64,000 bases of DNA, from NCBI GenBank assembly GCA_043822065.1, contig JBDRCC010000001.1, positions 1 through 64,000 on the forward strand, given 5' to 3'. Within the stretch, counting starts at the first letter, position 1. Each line of letters begins with the position of its first letter. Shown here one piece after another: positions 5,770 through 57,873 of the stretch. A model generated the notes under the pieces. It made no database searches and was not told where the DNA came from. It was given only the letters and a program-made list of their open reading frames with translations. A program made the translations under genes and the position numbers. The DNA comes from JBDRCC01 sp043822065 [NCBI: archaeon]. GTDB lineage: Archaea; Undinarchaeota; CAZHTU01.

Positions 5770-5777
5770 GTGAATCC

Positions 5778-7971: not shown

Positions 7972-7995
7972 CGTTGATTGAATAAAGGTGAACGG

Positions 7996-12063: not shown

Positions 12064-12203
12064 GCCTTTACGTCTTTGTGCTTCATCCTCAGGCCGGAGT
12101 AATTGCATTTCCTGCAGGTCGTCGCCCTGACTGGGTTTTTAGCATTGCATTTCCTGCAGATCTTCATGCCAAACAGCCTTGCTTCAGCTTCGGGGAATCC
12201 CAT
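12060..12203 (-). CDS. rpl40e: Ribosomal protein eL40
   Basis: A 47-residue ORF, easily missed because of its size. It reads [16 protein letters not shown], then RKCNAKNP and [14 protein letters not shown], i.e. the zinc-ribbon C-x2-C...C-x2-C of archaeal L40e, and ends KHKDVKA, close to the usual archaeal length and termini. A TATA-like element (agtttaaaa on the minus strand) lies about 25-30 bp upstream of the ATG. The stop overlaps the convergent flavoprotein gene by 4 bp. Confidence 0.93.
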
Positions 12204-12256
12204 GTTGGGGATATAGTAGACGGCTGCCTTTTAAACTTTTTCGCCAACGTTTCCAC

Positions 12257-12349
12257 GGCGAGTCTAGCTCGCCGGGGCCCCAAGGATTGCATCCTTGTGG
12301 TTGCCGAGCGAAGCGAAGGAAAAAGGTTGTTTTAAACCTTTTCGTCGGC
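12257..12349. other. Three-hairpin intergenic segment (possible small RNA or terminator)
   Basis: Between the end of the transglutaminase-like gene and the eL40 promoter the sequence can fold into consecutive stems: GGCGAG/CTCGCC (12257-12273), CAAGGAT/ATCCTTG (12281-12297) and AAAAGGTT/AACCTTTT (12321-12342), the last enclosed by GCCGA/TCGGC (12303-12307, 12345-12349). No ORF is convincing here. It may be a structured terminator of the pyrG-transglutaminase operon or an untyped small RNA. Confidence 0.4.
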
Positions 12350-42971: not shown

Positions 42972-43106
42972 TTAGTATACTAAACATATCACACGTTTTT
43001 TTATAGTAATACATCCTAAATAAACGCTACACTCTAAAAAAATAGATATTTTGTATACTATCGATATATGAAAAAATATATAAATTAGTATACTAAATTG
43101 TATACA
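42972..43106. promoter_or_regulatory. Four GTATAC-centred palindromes before the fic gene
   Basis: GTATAC occurs at 42975, 43053, 43088 and 43100. The first and third are in TTAGTATACTAA, the fourth in TTGTATACAA, the second in TTGTATACTA. Such clustering in an AT-rich 178-bp region just upstream of a self-standing Fic gene looks like an operator array; a TATA-like run (aaaatatataaatt) overlaps it. Confidence 0.6.
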
Positions 43107-43132
43107 AAACAATTAATCTTATTAAAAAGACG

Positions 43133-44185
43133 ATGAGACACATAGTTAAGAAAAATATTAGCGGAAACGAGTATTATTATTTTCAACTCAAGCTAGCGTC
43201 GATAGACCCAAAAAAGGAGCCGTATCTGTACAGCAAGTACATTGGCGAGTATTTGCCGTCAGAGTCTGTTCTAAAAAACTTTTTAATGAAGCGGGCGGAA
43301 GATTTGGCGATAATTACTGCGAGTAACCTTGGTAAGGGCATACGTACATATTTCAGAAATGGACCGGATATTAAAGAAGTAGAAAGGGATAGATGGTGGT
43401 TTTATTTTATTAACAATTACGATCTTTTTGAGGATCAAAATTCTACGTATCAGTCATTATTTGCCATACTATTTACGCTCCATACAAATGTAATAGAGGG
43501 CTCCAAAATGAGACAAGACGATATTATCGCCATGACTAGTGACTCCCGGAAGAAAGTAGTCACCTTCGAAGAGAAAGAGGTCACAAATACCCTGGATGCA
43601 CTCAAGTTTTCAGTTTCTAATGAAATGAAGTGGAATGTATCTTCAATAAAAAAACTTCATAGTAAGATATTGCCGGATGACCCCTTGGCCGGAAAATTTA
43701 GGATACGGGAGGTGGAGGTTGGTGATGCGACGCGAACGCGACTGTACAATACCGTGGAACCGCAAAAAATTAGAAAAGAACTTAGAGAGTTACTTTACTG
43801 GTTCAACAGGGAACATAACAAGGTATATCCTCCTCAACTAGCTCTTGAATTCCATTGGAGATTTGAGAGAATCCACCCATTTCAAGATGGAAATGGGCGA
43901 GTAGGGAGATTACTGCTAAATAGAATACTAATTGAGCACCACTTCATGCCAGTGATTTTCTTTTCGGAAAACGTTAGACAGTATTACGATGCAATAGCGC
44001 AAGCTAGAAACGGTAATTCTAGCAAGTTAGCTACGTTTTTCCTTAGGCAAAATAAAAAAACAAAGGAAGCCATGGAGCGTTTTAAAAGGGAAGGTATTGT
44101 CTCAGGACGGCGCTCTAGGATAGGTAGATGGACGATTAAAAGAGGAAAAACACCGAAAGAGTACGACGTAGAGGCCGAGGAATAA
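43133..44185 (+). CDS. Fic-domain protein (putative AMP transferase)
   Basis: 350 residues, visibly AT-richer than its neighbours. Active-site motif FERIHPFQDGNGRVGRLLLNR (HPFxxGNGRxGR) is intact. Upstream TNVIEGS fits the inhibitory helix motif ([ST]xxxE[GN]), so this is a class II, self-inhibited Fic. A C-terminal basic segment (KREGIVSGRRSRIGRWTIKRG) may bind nucleic acid or target. Fic enzymes usually transfer AMP to a protein; target unknown. No obvious antitoxin ORF beside it. Confidence 0.92.
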   Translation: MRHIVKKNISGNEYYYFQLKLASIDPKKEPYLYSKYIGEYLPSESVLKNFLMKRAEDLAIITASNLGKGIRTYFRNGPDIKEVERDRWWFYFINNYDLFEDQNSTYQSLFAILFTLHTNVIEGSKMRQDDIIAMTSDSRKKVVTFEEKEVTNTLDALKFSVSNEMKWNVSSIKKLHSKILPDDPLAGKFRIREVEVGDATRTRLYNTVEPQKIRKELRELLYWFNREHNKVYPPQLALEFHWRFERIHPFQDGNGRVGRLLLNRILIEHHFMPVIFFSENVRQYYDAIAQARNGNSSKLATFFLRQNKKTKEAMERFKREGIVSGRRSRIGRWTIKRGKTPKEYDVEAEE

Positions 44186-44213
44186 TCTAACTTTTTGACA
44201 TAAAGTTTAATGT

Positions 44214-45875
44214 TTACTTCTGGCCTAAGTACAGCTGGTCGATATAGCTAAGGTCGCTGCAGTCCTCCGGCTTCCGGTCGTCCCTGAGGCAGACGAGCCG
44301 AGGAAAGCGGAGGGCGTAGCCTGACGAGTATGTCGGAGATTTCTGTATCTCCTCGTAAGCGATTTCAAAGACAACTTCCGGCTTGATTTCAATCTTCTGG
44401 CCTTTCTCCGAGATTGCCAGGGGCTTGAGGAGCGCGGTCAGCTCCCTGAACTGGTCGTCGGACAGTCCCGTCGCCATTTTGCCGATTTCCAAAAACTCGC
44501 CGGTCTGGGCGTCCCGGCAGGCAAGGTAGAACGAGCCGAACCAGGACGTCCTCCTCCCTTCGCCCCAGTCGGCGCCGATGACGACGAGGTCGAGGTTTTC
44601 CATTGTAGGCTTGATTTTGAGCATGTACCCGACCCGCGAGCCAGGCTTGTACCCGGCGTCGAGGTTTTTCGCCATTATGCCCTCCTGCCTGTCCTTCAGG
44701 GCGGCGTCATAGAATTTCTGTATCTCCTTTTCATTGTCTGACACTATCTTTGTGGAGAGCCTTAGGCGGTCTGACTGTGACACAATCTTTTCAAGGGCTT
44801 CCCTGCGCCTTTTGAGCGGCTCGGAGAGGTAGTTCTTCCCGTCGAGGTAGAGGAGGTCGAATAGGTGGAGGGTGACCGGGTGGGACTTGGCTACCTCGTC
44901 GATGTCGTACTTCCGCTTTATCCGCTTTGAAAGCATCTGGAAGGGTAGCGCCTTCCCCGTCTTTGGGTCGGTGGCGACGGCTTCGCCTTCGATAATTGCG
45001 TTTTTTGCCTTGACTCCGTGCGAGACCATCTTGACTATGTCCGGGAACTGTTTTGTCACATCCTCAAGGCGGCGGGTATAAACTGTGATTTTTTTGTCAA
45101 CGATGTGTATCTGGGTGCGGGCGCCGTCGAACTTGTACTCGTACTGCGCCTTGCCTATGCGCTGGACCGCGTCCTTGATTCCATCTGCCTTCTGGGCGAG
45201 CATTACCTTGAGCGCCCTGCCTGGCTCGAGCTTGGACTTGAGGAGGCCGGGTTCCCCTGAGGACTTTGCAATCTTTGAGACCTCACTGAAGTCGTTGAGG
45301 ATGTCGTATGAGTGCTGGACCGCCTGCGGCGAGACTTCGAACGCCTTTGCAATGGCGTCGCGGACTATGCCCTCGCCGACCCCAATTCTCAGGGTGCCGA
45401 GTATCGTCCTCACTATGTAGCATGCTTCCGCCGGGCTGGCGGAGGAGAGGAGCTTTGAGACGACAGCCATTTTCCTGTCCACCGACTTCGCCCCGGAGAT
45501 TTCAGCAAGGCGTTTCAGTTCGGAGTGGACGCCTGCGGTGTCAAGGGTCGCAGATGCAAGCGTCTGCTGCCTTTTGAATTTAAGGAGCTCCCGCGCGGTT
45601 AGCCCGTGGTCCCCGGTCTTTTTCATGGCTTCGTCAAACTTTGCCTTTGGCGCGCCCGAGACCCGGAGGATTGCCTTCTCGACGAGCTTTGAGGCGATTC
45701 CTATCTCCTTGTCTGAGTGCGGGGGAAAGACCCTGCCCTGGGAGAGGAGGACTACCGAGCCGAGGACTGCAGAAGGCGTTTTTGCTAGGAACTCAGCCAG
45801 TAGGGCAGTCTTTTCCAAAGTCTTTGGCGTGGACTCAAGGCGCCCGTATAAGCCTGCCAGTTCGGAGTACCGCAT
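44214..45875 (-). CDS. lig: ATP-dependent DNA ligase
   Basis: 553 residues, standard archaeal replicative ligase. N-terminal DNA-binding domain, adenylation motif YEYKFDGARTQIH (KxDG lysine near residue 245), YTRRLEDVTKQFPDI, AIIEGEAVA, EGIMAKNLDAGYKPG and the C-terminal OB motif FPRLVCLRDDR. Acts with FEN-1 on Okazaki fragments. No PIP box is obvious. Confidence 0.96.
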   Translation of the reverse strand: MRYSELAGLYGRLESTPKTLEKTALLAEFLAKTPSAVLGSVVLLSQGRVFPPHSDKEIGIASKLVEKAILRVSGAPKAKFDEAMKKTGDHGLTARELLKFKRQQTLASATLDTAGVHSELKRLAEISGAKSVDRKMAVVSKLLSSASPAEACYIVRTILGTLRIGVGEGIVRDAIAKAFEVSPQAVQHSYDILNDFSEVSKIAKSSGEPGLLKSKLEPGRALKVMLAQKADGIKDAVQRIGKAQYEYKFDGARTQIHIVDKKITVYTRRLEDVTKQFPDIVKMVSHGVKAKNAIIEGEAVATDPKTGKALPFQMLSKRIKRKYDIDEVAKSHPVTLHLFDLLYLDGKNYLSEPLKRRREALEKIVSQSDRLRLSTKIVSDNEKEIQKFYDAALKDRQEGIMAKNLDAGYKPGSRVGYMLKIKPTMENLDLVVIGADWGEGRRTSWFGSFYLACRDAQTGEFLEIGKMATGLSDDQFRELTALLKPLAISEKGQKIEIKPEVVFEIAYEEIQKSPTYSSGYALRFPRLVCLRDDRKPEDCSDLSYIDQLYLGQK

Positions 45876-45957
45876 GAGCCTCTATAAGCTCAGCACGTTT
45901 TTAATGCTTTAGAGGGCAAGATAGAATTTTAAACCGGTGCTCTATTAGCATATTAAG

Positions 45958-47682
45958 TTGCTAGGGATATCTGCAAGCAAGACAAAGAGAATTTTGGCCT
46001 ACGCAAAGCCGCATCTAGGGCTGATGGCGCTTGTCTTCCTGGTTATGATAGTCGCCACGGCGCTCGGGCTCGTCAACCCGTACCTTATGAAGATATTAAT
46101 CGACGACGTCCTCGTCGCCGGAAACCTCAGGCTCTTTGCATACGTGCTCGGCGCGTATATTGTGGTGATGGTGATTGCGATAGGGGTTACCATCGCGCTC
46201 AGCTATTATTCCACGCTCCTGACTGAGCGGATTGCACTTGACGTGAGGAGGCAGCTGTTCAACCACATTGAGTCGATGTCCCTCGGCTTCTTCAAGGAGC
46301 GCAAGACGGGGGACATAGTGTCGCGGCTGATGACAGACGTCTATGGGGTGCAGTCGTACATAACGACGTTCATGAACGGCATAGTGCTGAACATCATAAC
46401 CCTGGTGATAATATTCGCAATAACGATGTCAATCAACTGGCAGATTACGCTGATTTCCCTCTACATCGTGCCGTTTTATATCTGGGCTGAGAAGTACTAC
46501 GGCAACCTGATGCGGAAGCAGAGGAGGAAGCTGCGGGAGCAAAGCGCAGACATGCTGGGCTTCCTTGAGGAGAACATAAACTTCGTCAAGCTGGTCAAGA
46601 GGTTCCACAGGGAGGAGTATGCCGAGGCGGACTTCAAGAGGCGGGCGGAGAAGATGCTCAAGCTGGACGTCAAGGCGTCGCTCACGGGCGGGCTGGCTTC
46701 AAGCTTCATCGCGCTTGTGACATTCCTGCCCCTACTTGTCATCTTGGGGATTGGCGGCTACCAGGTGATAAAGGGGATGCTTACCATCGGCGGGATGATT
46801 GCGATATACACTTATATCGGCAAGCTGTTCGAGCCGATTGACAGCCTGAACTCCTCGGTCATGTCCCTCCAGGGCGCGCTTGCGTCCGTGGACCGCGTGT
46901 TTGAGTTCCTCGACAAGAAGGAAAAGATAGTGGACGCCCCTGACAGCGTGGCTGTCAAGTCCCTGAAGGGGGAGATAGAGTTCAAGAAAGTCAGCTTCAA
47001 GTTCAAGGACAAGGTCATCCTGGACAACGCAAGCTTCAGGATAAAGCCTGGCGAGCAGGCTTATCTCATCGGCGCCAGCGGGAGCGGGAAGAGCACGATT
47101 GGCGACCTGATATTCAGGTTCTACGACCCGGACAAGGGGCAGGTGCTCATTGACGGCATGGATGTAAAAAAAATCAAGATTGGCTCCCTGCGCGAGCGGC
47201 TGGGGATTGGCTCGCAGGAGCTGATACTCTTCAATACCACGATTGCCGACAACATCCGCTTTGGCAAGACGCACGCAAAAATGGAGGAGGTAAAGGCGGC
47301 GGCGAAGACTGCGCAGGCTGCGGACTTCATCGAAAAAATGCCGGAAGGCTACGAGACAGTAGTAGGGCCTGGCGGCGGGCTTCTTTCCGGCGGGCAAAAG
47401 CAGAGGATATCCCTATCGAGGACGATTCTGCACAACCCGGACATCTACATACTTGACGAGGTAACGACCGGGCTTGACCCGGAGTCTGAGAAAAAGATAG
47501 AAAGCGCCCTGCGGGAAGTGACCAAAGGCAAGACGACGGTGTACATAACTCACAAGCTCCGCTCTGCAAAAGGCGCGAAGAGGATTCTCTTCTTGAGGGA
47601 CGGGAAAATAGTAGAGGATGGAAGCTTCGACGCGTTGCTCAAGAAGAAAGGAGATTTTTACAAGTTCTACAAAGAAGGATAA
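45958..47682 (+). CDS. ABC exporter (fused membrane and ATPase domains)
   Basis: 574 residues from a TTG with no Shine-Dalgarno site, TATA-like gaattttaaacc about 30 bp upstream (probably leaderless). Six-TM type I exporter domain, then an ATPase: Walker A GASGSGKST, signature LLSGGQKQRISLSRT, Walker B IYILDEVTTGLD. No peptidase domain. Composition is that of the GC-richer backbone, but it ends 54 bp before the radical SAM cluster, so a role exporting its product cannot be excluded. Confidence 0.92.
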   Translation: MLGISASKTKRILAYAKPHLGLMALVFLVMIVATALGLVNPYLMKILIDDVLVAGNLRLFAYVLGAYIVVMVIAIGVTIALSYYSTLLTERIALDVRRQLFNHIESMSLGFFKERKTGDIVSRLMTDVYGVQSYITTFMNGIVLNIITLVIIFAITMSINWQITLISLYIVPFYIWAEKYYGNLMRKQRRKLREQSADMLGFLEENINFVKLVKRFHREEYAEADFKRRAEKMLKLDVKASLTGGLASSFIALVTFLPLLVILGIGGYQVIKGMLTIGGMIAIYTYIGKLFEPIDSLNSSVMSLQGALASVDRVFEFLDKKEKIVDAPDSVAVKSLKGEIEFKKVSFKFKDKVILDNASFRIKPGEQAYLIGASGSGKSTIGDLIFRFYDPDKGQVLIDGMDVKKIKIGSLRERLGIGSQELILFNTTIADNIRFGKTHAKMEEVKAAAKTAQAADFIEKMPEGYETVVGPGGGLLSGGQKQRISLSRTILHNPDIYILDEVTTGLDPESEKKIESALREVTKGKTTVYITHKLRSAKGAKRILFLRDGKIVEDGSFDALLKKKGDFYKFYKEG

Positions 47683-47735
47683 GAATAAGTAGGAATGCAT
47701 AATCTAAATAAAGAAACTAAAGCATATAAGCCATT

Positions 47736-49526
47736 ATGAAAATTCTGCTAATAGAGCCCAATGTACAAACATCAAATTACGTGTCCCAACGGGACTACAG
47801 GGACAATGGTGAGTTGGAGTCACCATGGGCAGGCTATCTAGCCGCAGTTATAGGTAGAAGGCATGATATAAAGTTCATAAATTGCTCGTTTCCCCCAACG
47901 GATAGTAGCGGATACTTTAGTATTAAAAGAAAGAAGAGCATTACCGATATTGAAATTTTGAACAACTTTAGAAAGTTCTCACCTTCGGTAGTCGCGTTTA
48001 CATCTTATGAAAAATCATTTGAGAGAGTAGTAAAATTGGCAAAAAAGTTCAAGAGGACAAACCCAGCGTGCAAGATAGTCTTAGGTGGGCATTACCCAAC
48101 GTTCACCTATACGCAATTGTTAGATGGGACGTGGTGCGATATCGTGGTTGTTGGTGAGGGATTCATTACCATAAAAGAATTAGTGTCATGTATAAACGCT
48201 GGAAAAAGCTTTGATGAAGTTAAAGGAATAGCCTATTTAGAGAATAATAGGATAGTTTATACTGGACGACGGGAGCCATTAAAAGATTTGGACGTTTTAC
48301 CGTTTCCAGATAGGCAGATATACCCAAAATGCAAGGAGCTTACGGATAGCAGCATACTAATTATATCGTCGATGGGCTGCCCGTGGGGAAAATGCACATT
48401 TTGCAGTATTGGGGCGTTTTATAATGGGCGACATTATGCAACACGATCGGCTAAAAACATTCTTGACGAGATTGAGTCAGTAGCTAGGGTAAGGGAAGTA
48501 AAATCAGTCCATTTTGTCACGGAAGGGGCACTTTATCAGCTAAAAAGCATTATAAATGAAAAAGTAAAACGAGGGCTAAATTTTAAATTTACATTAGAGG
48601 CAAGGATTGATGAGATCCTAAGATTTAAAGACAGTATAAGCTACGCAAAAAAAAATGGATTGGACGGGTTTCTTATAGGCATAGAAGTATTTTCCGACAG
48701 GATTTTAAAAATATTTAATAAAGGTTTGACCTGTGACAAAATAATATCTGCGCTCGACTACTTAGATGATTTGAGGATACCTAAATTGCTAGCATTTATT
48801 CCGTTTTCACCCTGGATAACCCGGGAAGAATTTTTATACAATCTTAGAATGATGCTAAATTGCGCAGTCTGGAAAGATCCAAGACTGTATTATATCCCGT
48901 TAAACGAAATCTTTCAAGAGGTTGAGTTTTACGCTGGAACTGAATTGCGAAAGCAGTATGGTAGGAGTTTAGATTATGAGAATGCGGACCTAAAAAAGGC
49001 GCTAGATAGGATGACTCATATACGAAGTATCAATAAACGCGTAGGGGATGCGGACACTGGCTCAGTAAGACTAAAATGGATCTCACTTGCGAGATATGTA
49101 GCTGGCAGTATTAGGGCGAAGAGTAAGTATCATGGTAAGGGGATACCTGGGATCGGCCTAAATGCACAATACATAACAATAAACAAAGAAGACACGCCTT
49201 GCTTAATAAACAAAGATAGGACAATATATCGCCTTAATGGAAAGGAGTTGCGCGCAATGAGGGAATTAAAGCAAAAATCGCCTAATTTGTATGAAGAGAT
49301 AGGGATGGTGATACTGCCCAGCAAGTCATATTTAGTAGATGTTATGCGCAAGAGGGCCGCGCCTATAACAAAAGAACAGCTTGTTTTTGCGCAGTATTCT
49401 CTAATGGGGTTGACTGAAGGGGAGATACGCAAGCAATTCGAGTATGAAAAACTGAGGTACGCCCCGGGCAACATAAAAAGGTATTTAAATATAAAGAGAG
49501 ATAGTTTGTATCGGAGGGAGGTATAA
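47736..49526 (+). CDS. B12-binding-type radical SAM protein 1 of the peptide cluster
   Basis: 596 residues, AT-rich. N-terminal cobalamin-binding-like Rossmann region (VVAFTSYEKSF, KIVLGGHYPTFTYTQLLDG, VVGEGFITIKELV), then the radical SAM core with the 4Fe-4S cysteines in GCPWGKCTFCSIGAF (C-x4-C-x2-C) and later ALDYLDDLRIPKLLAF. A long C-terminal region (~200 residues) is unassigned. Such enzymes do methylations or C-C bond chemistry. Transcribed with its own TATA-like box (ctaaataaag ~30 bp upstream) and followed by a 60-codon ORF one base after its stop. Confidence 0.85.
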   Translation: MKILLIEPNVQTSNYVSQRDYRDNGELESPWAGYLAAVIGRRHDIKFINCSFPPTDSSGYFSIKRKKSITDIEILNNFRKFSPSVVAFTSYEKSFERVVKLAKKFKRTNPACKIVLGGHYPTFTYTQLLDGTWCDIVVVGEGFITIKELVSCINAGKSFDEVKGIAYLENNRIVYTGRREPLKDLDVLPFPDRQIYPKCKELTDSSILIISSMGCPWGKCTFCSIGAFYNGRHYATRSAKNILDEIESVARVREVKSVHFVTEGALYQLKSIINEKVKRGLNFKFTLEARIDEILRFKDSISYAKKNGLDGFLIGIEVFSDRILKIFNKGLTCDKIISALDYLDDLRIPKLLAFIPFSPWITREEFLYNLRMMLNCAVWKDPRLYYIPLNEIFQEVEFYAGTELRKQYGRSLDYENADLKKALDRMTHIRSINKRVGDADTGSVRLKWISLARYVAGSIRAKSKYHGKGIPGIGLNAQYITINKEDTPCLINKDRTIYRLNGKELRAMRELKQKSPNLYEEIGMVILPSKSYLVDVMRKRAAPITKEQLVFAQYSLMGLTEGEIRKQFEYEKLRYAPGNIKRYLNIKRDSLYRREV

Positions 49527-49527
49527 A

Positions 49528-49710
49528 ATGCCAGAAATTAAAAAACTTAATCCGCCAACAGTTGACAAAATAGTGACTAACATGGGGAAAGTGAATTTAG
49601 CTCCAGAGTCAATAACGGCTATTCGTGGGGTTATAAAGGAACAGAAAGATGGCGCCGACACAAATATTGTTGACTGCAAAGGCAACCCGAACATGCTGGG
49701 TCAGAAATAG
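49528..49710 (+). CDS. Putative RiPP precursor peptide A
   Basis: 60 residues, ATG with an excellent ribosome site (GGAGGGAGGT) one base after the radical SAM gene stop. Residues 11-26 (TVDKIVTNMGKVNLAP) closely match residues 12-27 of peptide B (51203), giving a leader-like motif. The C-terminal half is Gly/Asn/Asp-rich with one Cys (DTNIVDCKGNPN) and would be the core. The short length, coupling to a radical SAM gene and paralogue support a modified-peptide precursor; no function is proven. Confidence 0.65.
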   Translation: MPEIKKLNPPTVDKIVTNMGKVNLAPESITAIRGVIKEQKDGADTNIVDCKGNPNMLGQK

Positions 49711-49758
49711 TTAGGATAGTTGTAGTAACATACGCTTTACGCGCTACTTGGCTTTATG

Positions 49759-51129
49759 CTAGTAGCAATTTTTTATTTTTGGCAGGGTATCCTCGATTAG
49801 CACGTCATACTCGGCTATATCTATGGGTTTGGTAAGAAGTCTGCCGAGGAAATATTTCACAACGTCTTTCATTGGGGTGCATATCTCCTTAGACGGTTTG
49901 AATAATGATCCTGTGAAGCTAAGATTATTATACGGACAATAGCCCGCGCATATGTACTTACAAAAACAGGAAGCGCAGGCATTTATACGATGGACAGTAA
50001 TATTTCGTATTAAATTAAGCTTCTTGGGATTTATGCGCACCTTGTTGCCGTTTATTGAGCCATAAACAAAAGTATTGCATACGCTATCGGTAAGATCGGA
50101 TGCAACCAAACAAGAGAGTATTTTACCTCTGGGGTGAACCACAAACAAAGGGCCACTTGAGTTGCATCCATAAATGGTCAACCCAAATGGGCTCATCTGC
50201 AGACCCGACAGATAGATGCCATGTTTCTCAGCAAACTCTATGCAGCGCAATGATTCGTGCACAAACTTTTCAAGATCAGGTAGTTGCAAGGCAGATGCCC
50301 TGCCAAACTGCCGGCATGGAGCGAAAGAAACCCGCTTTATCTTTAGGGAAACAAAATGCTTAAGAATTTCCATCATACGCCCCTCACAGTATTTTGTAAA
50401 GGTTGCAGATACCCCATAGGAAACGCCGTATTTATTAAACATGGCTATAGTTCGTCTAACGGAGTGGTATGATTTGTTTCCAGACAGCAAAGGCCGCTGT
50501 GCATTCTGAATAGAGGGGGGACCGTCAAAAGAAAGCTGGACATGCGCGCCGATTTTTTTAAACCATTTAACCTGCGATTCATTCAATGTCCCGTTAGTGG
50601 TAGAGCTAACCCTGAGTTCAATCCCTCGTGCATCACACTCCTTTTTTGCATAAGAGTAACAGCGTTTCATTAAATCAAACGCAAGGCTGGGTTCGCCTGC
50701 AGAAAAAAGCGATAGAAGGAAGGTTTTGTCACTTTTTTTAATTCCGTAGTCTATTGCTGTCTTTGCTATGCTCCACGGCATGTAATAAACCGTAGTACTG
50801 CCAGTATTGGAACAACAATAAGTACAGCGCATATTGCAATCAGTAGTCAATAGGAGAGTTACAGTAGGTATGGTAGATAACGCCGCCCTCAAGGTAGGCA
50901 CGGTATCTTGGGAGTCAACGAATTTGAAAAATCCTGTGACTAATCGGTGATTAGTATTTCTTTGCTCTACAAATTCCTTGTTTACGAGCGCAAGTATTCC
51001 CTTTTTTGGGACATAAATTATGTACTTGTTCGATTCGTAGGGAATAGTAAAGTGTTTGGATTTTGTTTTTGAAGGAACTGTCTTAGAATAACATATTTTC
51101 ACGCTTTTGTATATCTTAGGCGCAGCCAT
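49759..51129 (-). CDS. Radical SAM/SPASM peptide maturase
   Basis: 456 residues. Radical SAM cysteines in TTDCNMRCTYCCSN (C-x3-C-x2-C), SAGEPSLAFDL (GEP-type region), STTNGTL, SFDGPPSIQN; C-terminal SPASM Fe-S cluster cysteines around CASCFCKYICAGYCPYNN. The ~95 residues before the core are extra and could bind a leader. This architecture is the usual peptide-modifying maturase. Convergent with peptide A and divergent from peptide B. A minus-strand TATA (tatttaaag) ~27 bp upstream suggests a leaderless transcript. Confidence 0.87.
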   Translation of the reverse strand: MAAPKIYKSVKICYSKTVPSKTKSKHFTIPYESNKYIIYVPKKGILALVNKEFVEQRNTNHRLVTGFFKFVDSQDTVPTLRAALSTIPTVTLLLTTDCNMRCTYCCSNTGSTTVYYMPWSIAKTAIDYGIKKSDKTFLLSLFSAGEPSLAFDLMKRCYSYAKKECDARGIELRVSSTTNGTLNESQVKWFKKIGAHVQLSFDGPPSIQNAQRPLLSGNKSYHSVRRTIAMFNKYGVSYGVSATFTKYCEGRMMEILKHFVSLKIKRVSFAPCRQFGRASALQLPDLEKFVHESLRCIEFAEKHGIYLSGLQMSPFGLTIYGCNSSGPLFVVHPRGKILSCLVASDLTDSVCNTFVYGSINGNKVRINPKKLNLIRNITVHRINACASCFCKYICAGYCPYNNLSFTGSLFKPSKEICTPMKDVVKYFLGRLLTKPIDIAEYDVLIEDTLPKIKNCY

Positions 51130-51202
51130 TGAAGTGTAGTACCTACCTAACTTTAAATAGTATTTGACAATATTTATATCCTATTGCCATATTATATTAT
51201 TG
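51130..51202. promoter_or_regulatory. Divergent promoter of the SPASM maturase and peptide B
   Basis: 73 bp. On the minus strand TATTTAAAG lies about 27 bp before the maturase ATG; on the plus strand ATATTTATA lies about 26-34 bp before the peptide ATG. Neither start has a ribosome site, so both are probably leaderless. Confidence 0.55.
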
Positions 51203-51334
51203 ATGGTTTCAGTAGTGCACCCACTATTAAAAAAGGATGTAGAACGGATTGTTTCAAACTTGAAGAACTTGCATTTGGAGGATGCAGAGGCTAATGAGTT
51301 TATTGAACAGATAAGTGATCTATGTAGTGGCTAA
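51203..51334 (+). CDS. Putative RiPP precursor peptide B
   Basis: 43 residues. Residues 12-27 (DVERIVSNLKNLHLED) match the peptide A motif nearly position by position (V, acidic, basic, I-V, S/T, N, then L six residues on). The C-terminus is short, ending SDLCSG, with one Cys three residues from the end. Its stop overlaps the convergent kinase-like gene by 4 bp. Too short for most gene finders. Promoter shared with the SPASM maturase. Confidence 0.6.
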   Translation: MVSVVHPLLKKDVERIVSNLKNLHLEDAEANEFIEQISDLCSG

Positions 51335-52341
51335 GAGAGTTGATTGATAAGATACGCTATTCTTTGTCTTTGTGTTTCTGTTTTTGATTGAGCCAACTCG
51401 TGTTTCAATATCTGGATGGCAGTATCGAAGTTTTCACGAGGGGGAAATTCTATAAACAGATTTTTTTTCGTCAGCTTTTTTCCAATATACGCCTCGACGA
51501 TCTTCTTTTCTGATTGTTTAGCTGGGATGGGTCTATCGCTCTGTAAAAAAGCGCGTGCAAAGGAAGTTATAAAATATTTTTTTCTGTTTGGGAGAATGTG
51601 GTCGATATCTGAAAATAAGCGATATAACGCCAACACTCTAAAACGAGGCTCAGTATTTGGCATTACGCCCTCCCAGGTACCGCCATACGTAGGTTCAAAA
51701 TCAGCTATTTCCCCTTCAGTCGTTATGTTGTTTAATTCCATAGCACCATGGTATAGCCCAATATCAAACATTTTTCTTATGCTCTTGCCAAGGGTACTTG
51801 CGAGATAGTTGCAGTATTCCTTTTCAGTTTGTTTGCGGATCGCAAGATAGGCGTTTAGTATATCTGTTTCGAAGAGGAAGTCTGAGAGCCGCAACGGAGA
51901 AGCGAATGTTCTGGCAATAACTGCTAGTTTCTTCCCCTCGAAGGTACCATAATCGTAGCAACCAACTGGCCTCTGGCAAAAGACCCCTGCGTTAAATGCT
52001 ATTTTAGAGAGATTATGTTCTGCTAATGCTGTGGGGAGTTCAACTCCGCCCCATGCAAACCGGTTTAGTAGCCGTATCTTTTGCCCCTCAAAACCAATCC
52101 CTTTGTATTCTATTCCAGGATACCATTGGTCCCCAGATCTCCACGGGACATAGAACCAAGCTGATCTTGATGAGTGGCTTTCAAGGCAGGTAATGTTCCC
52201 AGGGCGTACTGACAAGGCTGGAACGGGAATCTGCACATGTTCTTTAAAATAGAATTTTGTTTTTGCAGTTGAAAAATTATAACACTTGGGGTAGACCCTC
52301 CGGCTTAGTTTCCATACGTCCTCCAAAAAGTTCTTGACCAT
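51331..52341 (-). CDS. SelO-like kinase-fold protein of the peptide cluster
   Basis: 336 residues. GVELPTALAEHNLSKIAFNAG with FCQRPVGCYDYG resembles the alpha-C/beta region of SelO (YdiU) proteins, and LYHGAMELNNI with EIADFEPTYGG looks like their catalytic loop, where the usual HGD Asp is replaced (here Ala) and Asn and Asp metal ligands remain. SelO enzymes AMPylate proteins. Role in this cluster unknown: phosphorylation or adenylylation of a peptide or enzyme. Leaderless-type promoter (TATA ~30 bp upstream). Confidence 0.5.
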   Translation of the reverse strand: MVKNFLEDVWKLSRRVYPKCYNFSTAKTKFYFKEHVQIPVPALSVRPGNITCLESHSSRSAWFYVPWRSGDQWYPGIEYKGIGFEGQKIRLLNRFAWGGVELPTALAEHNLSKIAFNAGVFCQRPVGCYDYGTFEGKKLAVIARTFASPLRLSDFLFETDILNAYLAIRKQTEKEYCNYLASTLGKSIRKMFDIGLYHGAMELNNITTEGEIADFEPTYGGTWEGVMPNTEPRFRVLALYRLFSDIDHILPNRKKYFITSFARAFLQSDRPIPAKQSEKKIVEAYIGKKLTKKNLFIEFPPRENFDTAIQILKHELAQSKTETQRQRIAYLINQLS

Positions 52342-52452
52342 GTCTGTGCACTTAGAAGTACCAATAGGGGATTTATATAGCTTACTTTGCAGAATACGAA
52401 CACTTCATCTTGAGGCAAATGTTAAATAAATGTAGCTATAAGAGAGTATACG
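52342..52452. promoter_or_regulatory. Divergent promoter of the SelO-like gene and radical SAM protein 2
   Basis: 111 bp. GATTTATATAG read on the minus strand is about 30 bp before the SelO-like ATG; TGTTAAATAAATG on the plus strand is about 28 bp before the radical SAM ATG. AT-rich, no other ORF seen. Confidence 0.5.
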
Positions 52453-53760
52453 ATGAGAATAGCTTTGATAACCCCAGTCCAGACGTTTAATAGGGCAGTT
52501 GAGATTATTCCATACCCAAGTCTTGGATTACTATATCTCGCAGCGTATCTTGAAAAAAAAGGACATAAGGTAAGAATAATAGACCTGCCTTTTTTAATGA
52601 TAAAAAACAAGGAGAATATGACTTTTTCTAGGGTTAGAGAGATTCTCAAAGAGTACAACCCAGATGTGATTGGGATAACCACACGGTGCCTGGATTATCC
52701 TTTTGATATACTGCTAGCACGGAATATAAAGAGGTTCATCAAAAAACCAATAATCTTTGGAGGTGTGCAGGCAACGCATACTGCTTACGACACGATAAAG
52801 GAGTTCAAGTGGGTAGATTTTGTTGTGAAGGGGGAGGGAGAGGTAACATTTATTGAACTCTTGACCGCCATTAAGGAAGGCAGACCATTCAATGAGGTGA
52901 GAGGTATTGTGTATAGAGAGGGCAACCGCGTAATTGAAACGAAAGACCGCCCATTCATTGAGGATATTGACTGTCTTCCTTTGCCAGCGTATCATTTGAT
53001 ACCAAAAGTAAAGAAGTACGGTTTAGACGCAATCCCTCTCATAACAACACGTGGGTGCCCCTTCAACTGCGCTTTCTGTTCGGTCTCAACAATGTGGAAA
53101 AGGACATTACGATGTAGGGGTGTACGCAGCATTATGCAGGAGATTAAACGGGAAAGAAAACGGCAGGGATTGAACCATGTTTCAATAAAGGATGACACGT
53201 TTACAGTAGATAATAGACGGCTCAAGATTTTGTGTAGAGAGTTCAAAAAAGAGGGAGTTACGTGGACTTGCTTTTCAAGGGTAGACACGATAGATGAAGA
53301 TATGCTTGAGCTTATGAAGGATAGTGGGTGTAACGGTATTTTTTATGGTGTTGAGTCAGCTTCGGTAAGAATACTGAAAAAAATAAGAAAGGGTGATAAA
53401 AGATTTTTGGAGAATGCCAGAAAAAATATTAAGAAGTGCCATGAGCTAGGTTTAGAACAGATTGTGTCGTTTATAATAGGATTTCCTAGTGAAACTGAGA
53501 AAGAAATCGCTAAAACGGTTGATATGGCGGAGAAAATGAAAAAACGGGGTTGCTCTACACAAGTTCATTTCCTCAGCCCGCTCTCTGGGTCGGACATCTA
53601 TAAGAGCAATAAGAACAATTTAATATTTGTAGGCCACTCGTCAGACGTATCTAGTGTCCGTGGCTTGAGTAAGAAATATGTGGATTTGATAAAGAAGTAC
53701 CCACATATTTTCCCTCAATTTTATATTATTAAAAACAGTGCACTTGCGAAATGGATTTAG
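52453..53760 (+). CDS. B12-binding-type radical SAM protein 2 of the peptide cluster
   Basis: 435 residues. N-terminal cobalamin-binding-like domain (PSLGLLYLAAYLEKKGHKV, PDVIGITTRCLDYPF, PIIFGGVQATHTAYDTI, VKGEGEVTFIELL) and radical SAM core with RGCPFNCAFCSVS (C-x3-C-x2-C), GIFYGVESASVRILKKI and IIGFPSETEKEI. Shorter and different in its C-terminus from protein 1, so the two are not recent duplicates. Substrate unknown; methylation or other radical chemistry on a peptide is inferred from context. Confidence 0.87.
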   Translation: MRIALITPVQTFNRAVEIIPYPSLGLLYLAAYLEKKGHKVRIIDLPFLMIKNKENMTFSRVREILKEYNPDVIGITTRCLDYPFDILLARNIKRFIKKPIIFGGVQATHTAYDTIKEFKWVDFVVKGEGEVTFIELLTAIKEGRPFNEVRGIVYREGNRVIETKDRPFIEDIDCLPLPAYHLIPKVKKYGLDAIPLITTRGCPFNCAFCSVSTMWKRTLRCRGVRSIMQEIKRERKRQGLNHVSIKDDTFTVDNRRLKILCREFKKEGVTWTCFSRVDTIDEDMLELMKDSGCNGIFYGVESASVRILKKIRKGDKRFLENARKNIKKCHELGLEQIVSFIIGFPSETEKEIAKTVDMAEKMKKRGCSTQVHFLSPLSGSDIYKSNKNNLIFVGHSSDVSSVRGLSKKYVDLIKKYPHIFPQFYIIKNSALAKWI

Positions 53761-53774
53761 GCGTTTTACGCGAT

Positions 53775-55400
53775 TCAATTAAAAAATTTATCAAAGTTGA
53801 TTAGCAGTTCTTGTGAGTCTTCATCCTTGAGCAATACTCCTTTTCCGACTGTGTTGTAGACCAAGTCGATATGCATACTGCAAGAGATGTCACCGTAAAA
53901 ATTTGTATTCCGACCAAGTGCAATATGGAATGAGTTTCTTTGCTTTTCATCGAGTAATGGGCTGCCAATTGGTCTATTGCCAAGGAAACCTATGCCAAAC
54001 TCACCCATGTACGGGAAGCTATCAGTATCCCCAAAGCTCTTTGCTTGGTCAAACATTTCCGCAACCACTTTAGAATTGCGAGCTGCAGACCATTTGGCTA
54101 CCTTTCCGTTTTTAAAAGTAAGATGCAGACCTTCAATTTTTTTTCCAAAGTAGAATACCTCATCGAATAGTATTTTGCCATTTGTTTTTTCTTTTAGCGG
54201 TGCGATAAAGACTTCTCCTGATGGGATATTAAGGGAATATTTGGCGCCTTCTTTCTGCTCGTCATCTATCAAAGCCCTGCGACCGTCCGTACTAAACCTC
54301 AGCTCAAGCGAACCATCTTTAGAGGACAACAAGAGATTTTTGCGATTTCCTATAAGAAGTTTAGCGTTATGCATTTTTTCGCGAGGCAGATTTAAAAAAA
54401 TAGAGAGGGCGTCCTCGAGAACCCTGCAAAGGTCAGTATAATTAGAATAACTTAGTGCTGATCTGTTTGCTTTGAAATCAGAATAGCTAGGGTAATCCAC
54501 TAGTATATGTGTGGCATGCCTGTGCCTTTTTTCGATAACCTCCTTAAGAGTATCAGAAAACCTTTGCGGTTTCCATTTGATTTCGTGGCCAGATGCATTA
54601 TCCTCTTTCATAAAGTTTATCGTCCCGTTGACATAAGCTGCCCGGTTGTAGTCCGACTTTCGCATCACATTGAGTATAGCATTATGCGCATCGCGGTTTA
54701 AGGCTACAAAATATTTTAGGTCCCCAGCATCACCAGTCCCATGGCAGCCTTTCTTCCAAAGGGCATCTAAAAGAGAATACGCCATTTGTAGAATAGCTGG
54801 AACGCCAAATTCAGTACCTATACTTACCCAAGACTTTTTGGGGTAGTCATAAAAATCGTTAACTATGTAATCCGCAAGCTTTGCATGATTTGGATAAGCA
54901 AATTCCATAAGACGAGCGCGCTGTTTGGCAGTGTAGGTGTAATAAATCCGTTTCCCATTTTTTAATTTCAAGAAGCGAGTTCGAGGATATCCTGGAAAAG
55001 CAGGTTGGAATATGGTTAGTAGGTCTTGACCGGCTACATTTGTATGGTTAAGATATTGTGAAAAGTTTTTTGATTTTTCTTTGTTTAGATCATTTTCATC
55101 AAAACGCGAAAAAACTATTCTTTTATTGAAATCGGACTTCAATTTTTCCGAAAAAATGGAGTCATAGCGCCTATCGTCAAAAATGCAGATTTTGGAAAGG
55201 GCGCCCACTTTAGCAAATTTCTCGGTCAGGGAGTACGCAAGTTCTATTTGAGCTAAAACATTTGGGTTGATTTCAAAGAGGATGTCATCCTTTTCAGATG
55301 GATCTATTCTGGTGACTATTTCCTCTTCTAGCCCCATTGGGTAACAGTACCTGCTAGTTGCTTTTGTGAGTGAGGGGCTGTAGGATATGTACGGATCCAT
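53775..55400 (-). CDS. M29-type (AmpS-like) aminopeptidase of the peptide cluster
   Basis: 541 residues from ATG 55400; a TTG at 55418 is possible, but the minus-strand TATA (tttttatag) places the likely transcript start near the ATG. The C-terminal third shows the family's metal and catalytic sites in order: SGEVFIAP (Glu), GEFGIGF (Glu), FHIALGRNTNFYG (His and Tyr), and MHIDLVYN (His and Asp). The N-terminal ~250 residues are longer and unlike usual M29 members. In this setting it could trim the leader from the modified peptide; it is also a possible general aminopeptidase. Confidence 0.78.
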   Translation of the reverse strand: MDPYISYSPSLTKATSRYCYPMGLEEEIVTRIDPSEKDDILFEINPNVLAQIELAYSLTEKFAKVGALSKICIFDDRRYDSIFSEKLKSDFNKRIVFSRFDENDLNKEKSKNFSQYLNHTNVAGQDLLTIFQPAFPGYPRTRFLKLKNGKRIYYTYTAKQRARLMEFAYPNHAKLADYIVNDFYDYPKKSWVSIGTEFGVPAILQMAYSLLDALWKKGCHGTGDAGDLKYFVALNRDAHNAILNVMRKSDYNRAAYVNGTINFMKEDNASGHEIKWKPQRFSDTLKEVIEKRHRHATHILVDYPSYSDFKANRSALSYSNYTDLCRVLEDALSIFLNLPREKMHNAKLLIGNRKNLLLSSKDGSLELRFSTDGRRALIDDEQKEGAKYSLNIPSGEVFIAPLKEKTNGKILFDEVFYFGKKIEGLHLTFKNGKVAKWSAARNSKVVAEMFDQAKSFGDTDSFPYMGEFGIGFLGNRPIGSPLLDEKQRNSFHIALGRNTNFYGDISCSMHIDLVYNTVGKGVLLKDEDSQELLINFDKFFN

Positions 55401-55487
55401 AGAATATACTTGTACCAAGGGCTATAAAAAGAATAGCATGGAGGGATAAACGTTAAATAAGCGCAGATACTTCTTACCTGCGGGGAC

Positions 55488-56126
55488 ATGGAAGTAAAGA
55501 TTGCGCCATCGATTTTATCAGCGGATTTTGCAAGGCTAGAGGACGAGATAAAGCGCATCGAGGACGTGGCGGATTGGATTCATGTCGATGTGATGGACGG
55601 GCACTTTGTGCCGAACATATCAATCGGCGTACCTGTGGTGCGGAGCGTAAGCAGGATTACCGACCTGCCGATTGACACCCACCTGATGATAAGCAACCCG
55701 ATGGGCTTCCTAAAGCCGTTTTCGGAGGCGGGGTCGGACTACATATCCGTGCACGCGGAGGTGTGCAAGGACCTTTCAGAGCCGATAGCTGCTATACACG
55801 GGCTTGGCAGGAAGGCAGGGGTGGTATTCAACCCCAATACGGGGGTCAAGCCGCTCTGGAATGTGATTGACGAGGTGGATTACGTGCTTGTTATGGCGGT
55901 CATGCCGGGCTTCTCCGGGCAGAAGTTCATGCCCGAGGTCCTGAAGAAGGTCGAGGAGATAAGGAACCGGTCCGACATCGACATCCAGGTGGACGGCGGG
56001 ATAAATATTAATAATGCGAAGTCATGTGTAGAAGCTGGGGCAAACATTCTCGTTGCCGGAAACGCTGTCTTCAAGGCGGAGGACCCGCGGAAGGCGGTGT
56101 TAGAGCTTAAAGAGTGCGCTGAATGA
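55488..56126 (+). CDS. rpe: Ribulose-phosphate 3-epimerase
   Basis: 212 residues. TIM barrel with APSILSADFARLEDEI, DWIHVDVMDGHFVPNI (metal Asp/His), VLVMAVMPGFSGQKF and IQVDGGINI. Interconverts ribulose- and xylulose-5-phosphate. First of a non-oxidative pentose phosphate operon, overlapping the next gene by 4 nt; backbone composition resumes here. Confidence 0.96.
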   Translation: MEVKIAPSILSADFARLEDEIKRIEDVADWIHVDVMDGHFVPNISIGVPVVRSVSRITDLPIDTHLMISNPMGFLKPFSEAGSDYISVHAEVCKDLSEPIAAIHGLGRKAGVVFNPNTGVKPLWNVIDEVDYVLVMAVMPGFSGQKFMPEVLKKVEEIRNRSDIDIQVDGGININNAKSCVEAGANILVAGNAVFKAEDPRKAVLELKECAE

Positions 56127-56932
56127 GGGTTGAGGAACTCGAGATAAAGGCAAGAGAGATACGGCGCGACATCATCGGGATGCTCGCCGAAGCCGGCTCA
56201 GGCCACCCCGGCGGCTCGCTGTCAATAGCTGATATTCTTACGGTTCTTTATTTCCACAAGATGCGCCACAGGCCGAAGGAGCCGAAGTGGCAGGACAGGG
56301 ACAGGTTCGTCCTGAGCAAGGGGCACGGCGCGCCTGCGCTGTATGCCGTTCTTGCGGAGGCTGGCTATTTCCCGAAGGATGACTTGAAGACCCTGCGGAA
56401 GCTTGGCTCGCACCTCCAGGGGCACCCGGCCCAGCACAAGACGCCAGGCGTCGAGGCTTCGACCGGCTCGCTCGGGACTGGGTTGTCGCAGGCGTGCGGG
56501 ATGGCGCTTGCCGGAAAGCTCGACAAAAAGGATTATAGGGTTTATGCCGTGGTCGGGGACGGCGAATGCGACGAAGGGCAGATTTGGGAAGCCGCGATGT
56601 CGGCGGCGCACTACAAGCTCGACAATTTATGCGTTTTCCTTGACAGGAACTGCATCCAGCTTGACGGGTTCACGGACAAGGTGATGTGCCTGGGCGATAT
56701 TTCTGCAAAGTGGAAGGCGTTCGGCTGGAATGTCGTTGGGATTGACGGGCATGACGTCAGGCAGATAGTAAAGGCGCTCGATGATGCTGAAACGGTGAAG
56801 GGAAAGCCGACGATGATTGTTGCAAAGACTGTCAAGGGGAAGGGTGTCTCGTTCATGGAGAACAAACCCGAGTGGCACGGCGTAGCCCCGAACAAGGAGC
56901 AGACTGCAAAGGCGCTGGAGGATCTGAAATGA
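56123..56932 (+). CDS. Transketolase, N-terminal (TPP-binding) subunit
   Basis: 269 residues, half-size transketolase as in many archaea. SGHPGGSLSIADIL, SKGHGAPALYAVLAE, TGSLGTGLSQACGMAL and the TPP/Mg motif GDGECDEGQIWEAAMSAAHYKLDNL. Pairs with the C-terminal subunit encoded next, coupled by ATGA. Confidence 0.95.
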   Translation: MRVEELEIKAREIRRDIIGMLAEAGSGHPGGSLSIADILTVLYFHKMRHRPKEPKWQDRDRFVLSKGHGAPALYAVLAEAGYFPKDDLKTLRKLGSHLQGHPAQHKTPGVEASTGSLGTGLSQACGMALAGKLDKKDYRVYAVVGDGECDEGQIWEAAMSAAHYKLDNLCVFLDRNCIQLDGFTDKVMCLGDISAKWKAFGWNVVGIDGHDVRQIVKALDDAETVKGKPTMIVAKTVKGKGVSFMENKPEWHGVAPNKEQTAKALEDLK

Positions 56933-57873
56933 AGGGCACGAAGACCTCTATCAGGGACGTCTACGGGGACACCCTCGTCGAGCTAGGGAAGTCAAACAGG
57001 GACATAGTCGTTCTTGACGCCGACCTTTCGTGCTCGACGAAGACTGAGAAGTTCGGAAAGGCTTACCCGGAGAGGTTCTTTAATATGGGAATCTCAGAGG
57101 CGAACATGATAGGATATGCCGCCGGGCTGAGCCTCTGCGGGAAGATACCGTTTGCCTCGTCTTTTGCAATGTTTGCGGCGGAGAAGTGCTTTGAGCAGAT
57201 AAGGAACACCCTCTGCTATTCTAGCCTGAATGTCAAAATAGTCGCGACGCATTCCGGGATAAGCGTCGGCCCTGACGGCGTGTCGCACCAGGCGATTGAG
57301 GACATCGGAATAATGCGCGGATTGCCGAACATGAAAGTATGGGTGCCTGCGGACGGAATCCAGACGCGCGAGATGATACACGAGGCGGCTAAGGTCAAGG
57401 GTCCGCAGTACATCCGCTTAAGCAGGGTAAAGTTCCCTGATCTGTATGATGAGGGATACAAGCTGAAGGACAAATGTGATGTCCTAAGGGAAGGGAAAGA
57501 CGTTACGATTATCGCCTGCGGGCTTGAGGTTTCAGAAGCCCTGAAAGCGGCTGACAAGCTCAAGGAAAAGAAAATAGACGCTGCCGTCCTGAACATGCAC
57601 TCGATAAAGCCGCTGTGCGAAGGGTGCGCCGTGAAGTGGGCGAAGAAGACAGGACGGGTCGTGACTGCTGAGGAGCATAGCATAATAAACGGGCTCGGGA
57701 GCGCGGTTTCAGAGGTCCTTGCCGAAAAGTATCCTGTGCCGGTCGGAAGGGTCGGGCTGAGGGACGCATTCGCAGAATCCGGCGAGCAGGAAGAGCTATT
57801 CAGGAAGTACGGGCTGGATTCTGACGCAATAGCTAAAAAGGTCGTCGAGATAATGAAGGCGGGGGAGAAATGA
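56929..57873 (+). CDS. Transketolase, C-terminal subunit
   Basis: 314 residues from the ATG at 56929 (4-nt overlap with its partner). Pyrimidine-domain Glu region GISEANMIGYAAGLSL, THSGISVGPDGVSHQAIEDI and the C-terminal domain with GVVTAEEHSIINGLGSAV. With the previous gene forms the transketolase heterotetramer. Confidence 0.95.
   Translation: MKGTKTSIRDVYGDTLVELGKSNRDIVVLDADLSCSTKTEKFGKAYPERFFNMGISEANMIGYAAGLSLCGKIPFASSFAMFAAEKCFEQIRNTLCYSSLNVKIVATHSGISVGPDGVSHQAIEDIGIMRGLPNMKVWVPADGIQTREMIHEAAKVKGPQYIRLSRVKFPDLYDEGYKLKDKCDVLREGKDVTIIACGLEVSEALKAADKLKEKKIDAAVLNMHSIKPLCEGCAVKWAKKTGRVVTAEEHSIINGLGSAVSEVLAEKYPVPVGRVGLRDAFAESGEQEELFRKYGLDSDAIAKKVVEIMKAGEK

What the first reader, a model, noticed from the sequence alone, without database searches (positions are those of the whole stretch)
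47736..55400. Candidate undescribed RiPP-like system with three radical SAM enzymes, SelO-like protein, M29 peptidase and two tiny precursors
Seen: seven consecutive ORFs with AT-rich composition between GC-richer housekeeping genes. They encode two B12-type radical SAM proteins, a SPASM maturase, a kinase-fold SelO-like protein, an M29 aminopeptidase, and 60- and 43-codon ORFs placed next to the maturase. Known: SPASM and B12 radical SAM enzymes commonly modify ribosomal peptides, and peptidases remove leaders. Inference: a modified-peptide pathway in an archaeon with an unusual enzyme set and single-gene leaderless promoters on alternating strands.
Basis: partly seen in the sequence, partly recalled or inferred. 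Interest (0 to 1): 0.92.

Follow-up and report, generated by a model that had tools for sequence, protein, structure and literature searches.

The report
Archaeal modified-peptide cassette with two radical enzymes
A deep-branching archaeon carries genes that very probably make, chemically modify and export a small peptide; four of them occur in the same order in one distant archaeon, while the other genes nearby may not belong.

Summary
The seven ORFs exist as described, at about 40% GC between genes at 54-58%. A modified-peptide (RiPP) reading is well supported for part of the block. Relatives of the SPASM gene abut Cys-rich small ORFs at 9 of 15 Nanoarchaeota loci, against 6 of 85 control genes (criterion chosen afterwards). 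The closest relative found (38%, Aenigmatarchaeota) has the window's layout: ABC exporter > B12 radical SAM > 56-60 aa ORF, tail to tail with SPASM. P1 abuts rSAM1; P2 is weaker. The two P1-position ORFs are not significantly similar, nor are the B12 enzymes shown to be orthologues. SelO-like and M29 had no match at 31 related loci (P2 is too short for that test). "SelO" fails Pfam; M29 relatives occur in 8 of 19 other genomes. Inferred mechanism: SPASM cross-links and the B12 enzyme methylates a one-cysteine C-terminal core, which the ABC protein exports. New variant of a known kind; no chemistry shown.

The parts
45958..47682 (+). ABC half-exporter (574 aa), probable exporter of the cassette
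   Evidence: ABC_membrane and ABC_tran Pfam; 39% identity over 564 aa, E 4e-151, to the ABC gene in the same position in G605. Its GC3 (0.76) is host-like, unlike the rest of the block.
47736..49526 (+). rSAM1: B12-binding radical SAM protein, 596 aa, CX4CX2C motif, C-terminal extension
   Evidence: Pfam PF02310 and PF04055; best NCBIfam BchE, HpnR, ApyD, all far below cut-off; best PDB match OxsB, E 7e-11
49528..49710 (+). P1: 60-aa candidate precursor, single Cys with 10 residues after it
   Evidence: GGAGG beginning 11 nt upstream, start 1 nt after the rSAM1 stop; coding score above all 45 spurious ORFs; a 56-aa ORF sits in the same position in G605
49759..51129 (-). SPASM radical SAM peptide maturase, 456 aa
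   Evidence: NCBIfam nif11-maturase 140 bits, PapB 125.5 bits, SCIFF maturase 111.9 bits, all below cut-off; PDB 5wgg E 6.6e-22; relative in G605 at 38%
51203..51334 (+). P2: 43-aa second candidate precursor, single Cys, divergent from SPASM
   Evidence: coding score above 44 of 45 spurious ORFs; TATA-like 8-mer at -30; contains LHLED, resembling a motif in 7 of 17 related peptides. No match on the G605 contig at E <= 0.1
51331..52341 (-). 336-aa protein with a kinase-like/SelO-like catalytic-loop motif; membership in the system uncertain
   Evidence: No Pfam hit for SelO; hhalign of A1 to E. coli SelO E 0.0072, Prob 5.4%; two weak relatives in the phylum of G002, no radical SAM gene in the 1.8 and 3.0 kb seen around them
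52453..53760 (+). rSAM2: B12-binding radical SAM protein, 435 aa; membership uncertain
   Evidence: Pfam; nearest NCBIfam ApyD 256.9 bits, cut-off 750
53775..55418 (-). M29-type metallopeptidase (ATG at 55400); candidate leader peptidase or unrelated
   Evidence: PF02073 62.7 bits, cut-off 27; E402, E473, H498, H516, D518 invariant with three annotated aminopeptidases; M29 relatives in 8 of 19 genomes of the phylum of G002

Best explanation
The core is a four-gene RiPP-type cassette: ABC exporter > B12 radical SAM (rSAM1) > precursor P1, tail to tail with a SPASM radical SAM maturase. Shown: the genes, their composition, the abutting start of P1 behind rSAM1, and the same four-gene layout in one genome of the Aenigmatarchaeota-titled phylum. 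Inferred: P1 is translated together with rSAM1; its N-terminal part is a leader recognised by the SPASM enzyme; that enzyme forms a cross-link at the single C-terminal cysteine (thioether by analogy with PapB/SCIFF maturases) and rSAM1 adds a methyl group or makes another B12-dependent change in the C-terminal core; the peptide is cut and exported by the ABC protein. P2 may be a second substrate. rSAM2, the SelO-like protein and M29 (possibly the leader peptidase) are optional accessories or passengers in the same AT-rich block.
For: The SPASM protein, five relatives and the G605 relative score best with peptide-maturase models, and the window protein matches PDB 5wgg. At 15 Nanoarchaeota loci, 9 have an abutting ORF (<=300 nt) with >=5 Cys, against 6 of 85 control genes, Fisher p 9e-6, criterion set. 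Same order and orientation of ABC, B12 radical SAM, 56-aa ORF and SPASM on G605 contig C8; this SPASM is the closest found among 27 genomes with a match at E <= 1e-20 of 614 searched (15 of 371, 6 of 87, 6 of 156); a further 19 genomes gave only two with weaker matches. P1 coding signal and Shine-Dalgarno word. Both small ORFs carry one Cys followed by NP within 4 residues; shuffles give this at 3.3% (P1) and 1.6% (G605), post hoc.
Against: P1 and the G605 ORF are not significantly similar (local score p 0.15; last 22 residues p 0.44). rSAM1 is not shown to be orthologous to the G605 B12 enzyme: 25% global identity against 33% for rSAM2, 39 against 104 bits by tblastn, tree unresolved. Only one syntenic relative was found. 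P1 and P2 have one Cys each, while 13 of 17 small ORFs taken from the Nanoarchaeota loci have five or more. ABC has host-like GC3 while the rest is AT-rich. P1-P2 similarity is weak (120 of 5000 shuffles reach it). The window SPASM has no resolved place in the tree of its relatives (G605 not in that tree).
Confidence: 0.62

Rival explanations
1. The whole AT-rich block (rSAM1, P1, SPASM, P2, SelO-like, rSAM2, M29) is one pathway, with three radical SAM enzymes, an AMP- or phosphate-transferring kinase-fold enzyme and a dedicated leader peptidase.
For: Common base composition distinct from the flanks, also in P1 and P2; tight packing with short gaps or overlapping ends; aligned M29 catalytic positions intact.
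Against: 0 of 31 SPASM-relative loci carry a SelO-like or M29 match at E <= 1e-5, and none at E <= 0.1 on the G605 contig of 48,420 bases; genes alternate strands; two other AT-rich genes in the window lie outside the block; M29 relatives occur in 8 of 19 genomes of another phylum.
Confidence: 0.2
2. The AT-rich block is a patchwork of independently acquired or poorly conserved genes; SPASM and the B12 proteins act on other substrates (cofactor, lipid or protein maturation), and P1/P2 are unrelated small proteins.
For: B12 radical SAM proteins are common (172 of 371 genomes match rSAM1 at E <= 1e-15); precursor sequences are not demonstrably conserved; SPASM relatives in the phylum of G013 are mostly 611-667 aa proteins with no obvious precursor.
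Against: Four-gene layout shared with G605; P1 abuts rSAM1 with its own Shine-Dalgarno word; Cys-rich small ORFs next to relatives of the SPASM gene.
Confidence: 0.15
3. The product is a redox cofactor-like peptide (as PQQ or mycofactocin) rather than an exported peptide.
For: SPASM enzymes also serve such pathways (recalled); M29 could trim the peptide; weak matches to the quinohemoprotein (93.9/453 bits) and mycofactocin (39.2/265 bits) maturase models.
Against: Higher-scoring curated models are peptide cross-link maturases; an exporter gene is syntenic.
Confidence: 0.06

Closest known systems
PapB / nif11-type / SCIFF SPASM maturases and their peptides (NF047865, TIGR04064, TIGR03974)
   Same: Radical SAM plus SPASM architecture, Cys ligands, small adjacent precursor candidate
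   Different: Scores 125.5, 140 and 111.9 bits against cut-offs 340, 518.7 and 425; precursor candidates here have one Cys each
Archaeal radical SAM-modified RiPP clusters reported by genome mining, DPANN included (PMC12144867, passages seen)
   Same: Kind of cluster and part of the host range
   Different: The passages seen give counts and classes, not this gene arrangement
ApyD, B12 radical SAM RiPP Tyr beta-C-methyltransferase (NF050148; PMC10635010, passages seen)
   Same: rSAM2 matches this model best (256.9 bits); B12 radical SAM acting on a precursor peptide
   Different: Below the cut-off of 750; no P450 or MNIO gene recognised in the block
SelO protein adenylyltransferase (PF02696)
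   Same: HG-x-M-x-x-x-N loop and an R-x(4)-(P/H)-LR stretch in register with E. coli SelO
   Different: No Pfam match; E. coli SelO scores 513 bits in the same library
M29 aminopeptidases (PF02073)
   Same: C-terminal catalytic half with five aligned Glu/His/Asp positions
   Different: Longer N-terminal half that the Pfam model does not match

Membership tests
RiPP biosynthetic cluster | Precursor gene next to a peptide-modifying enzyme gene | tested here: met
   Candidate genes in place: P1 1 nt after rSAM1 and 48 nt from the SPASM end; P2 73 nt from the SPASM start
RiPP biosynthetic cluster | Precursor conserved across related loci (leader or core) | tested here: inconclusive
   Position conserved in G605; sequence similarity not significant; short post hoc core pattern
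RiPP biosynthetic cluster | Precursor is modified post-translationally | not testable with these tools
   Needs expression and mass spectrometry
Radical SAM/SPASM maturase | CX3CX2C plus seven SPASM cysteines (motif recalled) | tested here: met
   C98, C102, C105 and C322, C340, C385, C388, C394, C398, C417 invariant in the pair alignment
PapB, nif11 or SCIFF maturase equivalog | Curated NCBIfam cut-off reached | tested here: not met
   125.5/340, 140/518.7, 111.9/425 bits
Ranthipeptide/SCIFF-type precursor | Several cysteines in the core (recalled) | tested here: not met
   One Cys in P1 and one in P2
RiPP B12 radical SAM C-methyltransferase (TIGR03975, ApyD) | Curated cut-off reached | tested here: not met
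   rSAM1 with TIGR03975 81.7/281.85; rSAM2 with ApyD 256.9/750 and TIGR03975 116.6/281.85 bits
SelO (PF02696) | Pfam gathering score | tested here: not met
   No hit at E <= 1; positive control E. coli SelO 513 bits
SelO / kinase fold | Predicted fold | tested here: inconclusive
   Single-sequence model, mean pLDDT 36
M29 peptidase | Pfam score and metal-ligand positions | tested here: met
   62.7 bits against 27; E402, E473, H498, H516, D518 aligned; their role as ligands is recalled

The most novel reading that the evidence does not exclude
A RiPP class in DPANN archaea in which a SPASM enzyme and a B12 radical SAM enzyme both act on one short, single-cysteine C-terminal core, exported by a dedicated ABC protein, and in this organism further elaborated by a second B12 enzyme and an AMP-transferring SelO-like pseudokinase.
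Probability: 0.2. Interest if true: 0.82.

Novelty: new variant of a known kind. Interest (0 to 1): 0.58.

Why it matters
Archaeal RiPPs are mostly predictions: PMC12144867 (passages seen) says that only two lanthipeptides, from Haloarchaea, had been validated before it, and points to radical SAM-modified ones as unexplored. A compact four-gene cassette with a precursor candidate, seen in two deep archaeal lineages, can be expressed directly. The wider set of Nanoarchaeota SPASM loci with cysteine-rich small ORFs, and one three-repeat ORF, suggests that such peptides are diverse in small archaea, many of which are thought to live attached to a host (recalled).

Tried and rejected
SelO membership: rejected as a label; Pfam gave no hit, BLASTP nothing, and only a motif-level hhalign signal was found. 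SelO-like gene search: 2 of 19 genomes in the phylum of G002 (weak), 0 of 115, 0 of 87, 0 of 371; the tool warns that such empty answers lack a positive control. The phylum of G003 was searched with SPASM only, so the SelO-like protein and M29 were not sought there outside the fetched stretches. M29 was searched in the phylum of G002 only. Full-length rSAM1 orthologue: none seen; 1 of 19 and 172 of 371 genomes match, but the rows listed (list cut) end at residue 432 of 596 or before. P1-P2 paralogy: shuffle p 0.024, and against P1 the P2 ORF ranks behind two random ORFs, so not claimed. Leader motif in P2: 4% of P2 shuffles and 2 of 245 protein windows contain it, and it lies further from the N-terminus than in the 7 of 17 peptides that have it; P1 lacks it. 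Mobile-element evidence: no direct repeats of 16 nt or more found in 43000-57000, no tRNA near the block. Structure models of the SelO-like protein and M29 were unusable, mean pLDDT 36 and 34. Genome-contig scan with the SelO-like protein: nothing. Viral-contig scans with SelO-like, M29, A1 and the SPASM pair: nothing; with SPASM one partial 27% relative. Plasmid and phage tblastn: only distant radical SAM or M29 relatives, none for the SelO-like protein, E >= 4 for P1. PDB search with the SelO-like profile: three chance-level hits. PADLOC and PHROGs: nothing of weight.

Rows dropped: one search left B12 ORFs of 800 aa or more, and rows without a BLAST match at 1e-12, out of the tree. One search used only the 15 Nanoarchaeota loci, not the 8 + 8 loci of the other two phyla; in the phylum of G013 most SPASM relatives are 611-667 aa long and no obvious precursor was seen.
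Full report
Names used.

What is there. The block 47736-55418 holds, in order, rSAM1 (+), P1 (+), SPASM (-), P2 (+), a SelO-like protein (-), rSAM2 (+) and M29 (-). Pfam confirms B12-binding plus radical SAM domains in rSAM1 and rSAM2, radical SAM in the SPASM protein and M29 in the last. GC3 of the five large genes is 0.39-0.43, P1 0.43, P2 0.36; 22 of 24 other genes measured have 0.56-0.77, the exceptions being the genes at 43133 (0.41) and 61094 (0.34). By codon usage of the block P1 beats all 45 spurious ORFs and P2 beats 44 of 45. P1 starts 1 nt after the rSAM1 stop with GGAGG beginning 11 nt upstream; of nine genes scanned it is the only one with a listed Shine-Dalgarno word. TATA-like 8-mers (7 of 8) were found upstream of 7 of 9, without a chance control.

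Where it comes from. No genome is held for the window. A tree of aCPSF1 with 16 archaeal genomes puts it at the base of seven rows titled Nano-, Woese-, Aenigmat-, Nanohalo- and Nanoanaerosalina archaea (node 95/93); highest identity is 54%. It is a deep DPANN-type archaeon without a close relative in what I searched.

The SPASM family sits beside small peptides elsewhere. The window SPASM protein scores best with nif11-type, PapB and SCIFF maturase models, all below their cut-offs, and matches PDB 5wgg. Relatives at E <= 1e-20 occur in 15 of 371 Nanoarchaeota (drawn from a larger group), 6 of 87 genomes of the phylum of G013 and 6 of 156 Aenigmatarchaeota; in Iainarchaeota 2 of 19 match, at E <= 1e-10 only. 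In the Nanoarchaeota loci small ORFs with many cysteines abut the gene: 9 of 15 loci have one with at least 5 Cys within 300 nt, against 6 of 85 control genes of the same loci, Fisher p 9e-6. The criterion was chosen after seeing the loci. Five further loci have other plausible candidates: L065 two, 350-700 nt away; L064 ending in KCCI; L067, L068 and L070 sharing an LTGA(A/S)HPGCCKQ end; at L071 none was found. Nine such peptides and P2 gave no NCBIfam hit better than E 0.06.

A shared cassette. The closest relative (G605 contig C8, 38% over nearly the whole protein, E 4e-87) lies tail to tail with a 56-aa ORF, followed on that ORF's strand, reading outward, by a 597-aa B12 radical SAM gene and an ABC exporter gene with 39% identity over 564 residues to the window ABC gene. 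The window has the same order and orientation: ABC, rSAM1 (596 aa), P1, then SPASM tail to tail. Of 31 SPASM-relative loci only L127 (this one) and L064 (about 5 kb away) have a B12 radical SAM match at E <= 1e-5, and only L127, L063 and L129 an ABC match; several loci are short contigs, so absence is weak evidence there.

What does not follow. P1 and the G605 ORF are not similar beyond chance (p 0.15; last 22 residues p 0.44). Both have a single Cys followed within four residues by NP, which shuffles give at 3.3% (P1) and 1.6% (G605), a pattern noticed by eye. rSAM1 and the G605 B12 enzyme share 25% global identity, rSAM2 and the G605 enzyme 33%, rSAM1 and rSAM2 33%; by tblastn the G605 enzyme is nearer rSAM2 (104 bits) than rSAM1 (39 bits), and the tree of B12 proteins does not resolve them. 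So position, not orthology, is what is shown for that gene. P1-P2 similarity is weak, and P2 has no match on the G605 contig, though a 43-aa query has little power.

The outer genes. The SelO-like protein has no Pfam hit for SelO; in the same library E. coli SelO scores 513 bits. A three-sequence profile aligns to E. coli SelO with the HG-x-M-x-x-x-N loop in register (E 0.0072 for one comparison, probability 5.4%). Where active kinases have the Asp of HRD (recalled), Ala stands here and Val in E. coli SelO. Two weak relatives exist in Iainarchaeota, with no radical SAM gene in the 1.8 and 3.0 kb seen. The M29 protein keeps five Glu/His/Asp positions invariant with three annotated aminopeptidases, but relatives occur in 8 of 19 Iainarchaeota. 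rSAM2 is nearest ApyD, which methylates Tyr of a RiPP (PMC10635010, passages seen), but far below the cut-off. Neither the SelO-like protein nor M29 has a match at the 31 loci at E <= 1e-5.

Mechanism. Most likely P1 is made together with rSAM1, modified at its C-terminal Cys-containing segment by SPASM and by rSAM1, trimmed and exported by the ABC protein. The steps after gene order and the abutting start are inference by analogy with the named families.

Literature. Searches of the held library for Woesearchaeota + RiPP + radical SAM, 'archaeal RiPP' + radical SAM and SPASM + cobalamin-dependent radical SAM + precursor peptide + ABC transporter returned no papers. Broader searches were seen as listings only, except passages of PMC12144867, PMC9902471 and PMC10635010. 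PMC12144867 reports radical SAM-type RiPP clusters across archaea including DPANN, so the kind is known; this arrangement was not seen in what I read.

Verdict. Observation confirmed; interpretation partly supported; a new variant of a known kind, with one syntenic relative as the main new evidence.

Noticed in passing
L072:10092-10415 (-): A 107-aa ORF next to a SPASM gene whose best model is the FibroRumin maturase carries three copies of LRC(Q/L)GWCH(D/G)(S/T)P, which looks like a multi-core precursor.
   Followed up: partly
L067:9516-9698, L068:9157-9375, L070:8726-8944 (all -): Small ORFs beside SPASM genes in three genomes of the phylum of G007 share a C-terminal LTGA(A/S)HPGCCKQ: a conserved precursor-like family with a CC end.
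   Followed up: partly
L059:5938-6494 (+), L065:7146-7807 (-), L055:574-756 and 2330-2491 (-): Two different Cys-rich small ORFs per SPASM gene; those of L059 and L065 share an N-terminal (F/Y)RL(E/D)(D/S) motif.
   Followed up: partly
L132:6648-9700; L133 about 8650-12700; L134 about 2900-8000: In three genomes of the phylum of G003 SPASM-type genes neighbour a low-complexity repeat protein (His-Ser-rich in L132, Thr/Ser-rich in L133 and L134; part of L133 is masked), recalling the His-Xaa-Ser system.
   Followed up: no
window 43133-44185 and 61094-62479: Two further AT-rich genes (Fic-like and homing-endonuclease-like by eye, not scanned) among GC-rich neighbours, so AT-rich genes in this genome are not confined to the block.
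   Followed up: partly
L060:9712-10185 (+): A sub-threshold Peptidase_C39-like ORF lies divergently next to a SPASM gene with a Cys-rich small ORF.
   Followed up: no
window 47736-49526: rSAM1 has CX4CX2C spacing of the cluster cysteines, as OxsB does in the alignment, while rSAM2 and the G605 B12 enzyme have CX3CX2C.
   Followed up: no
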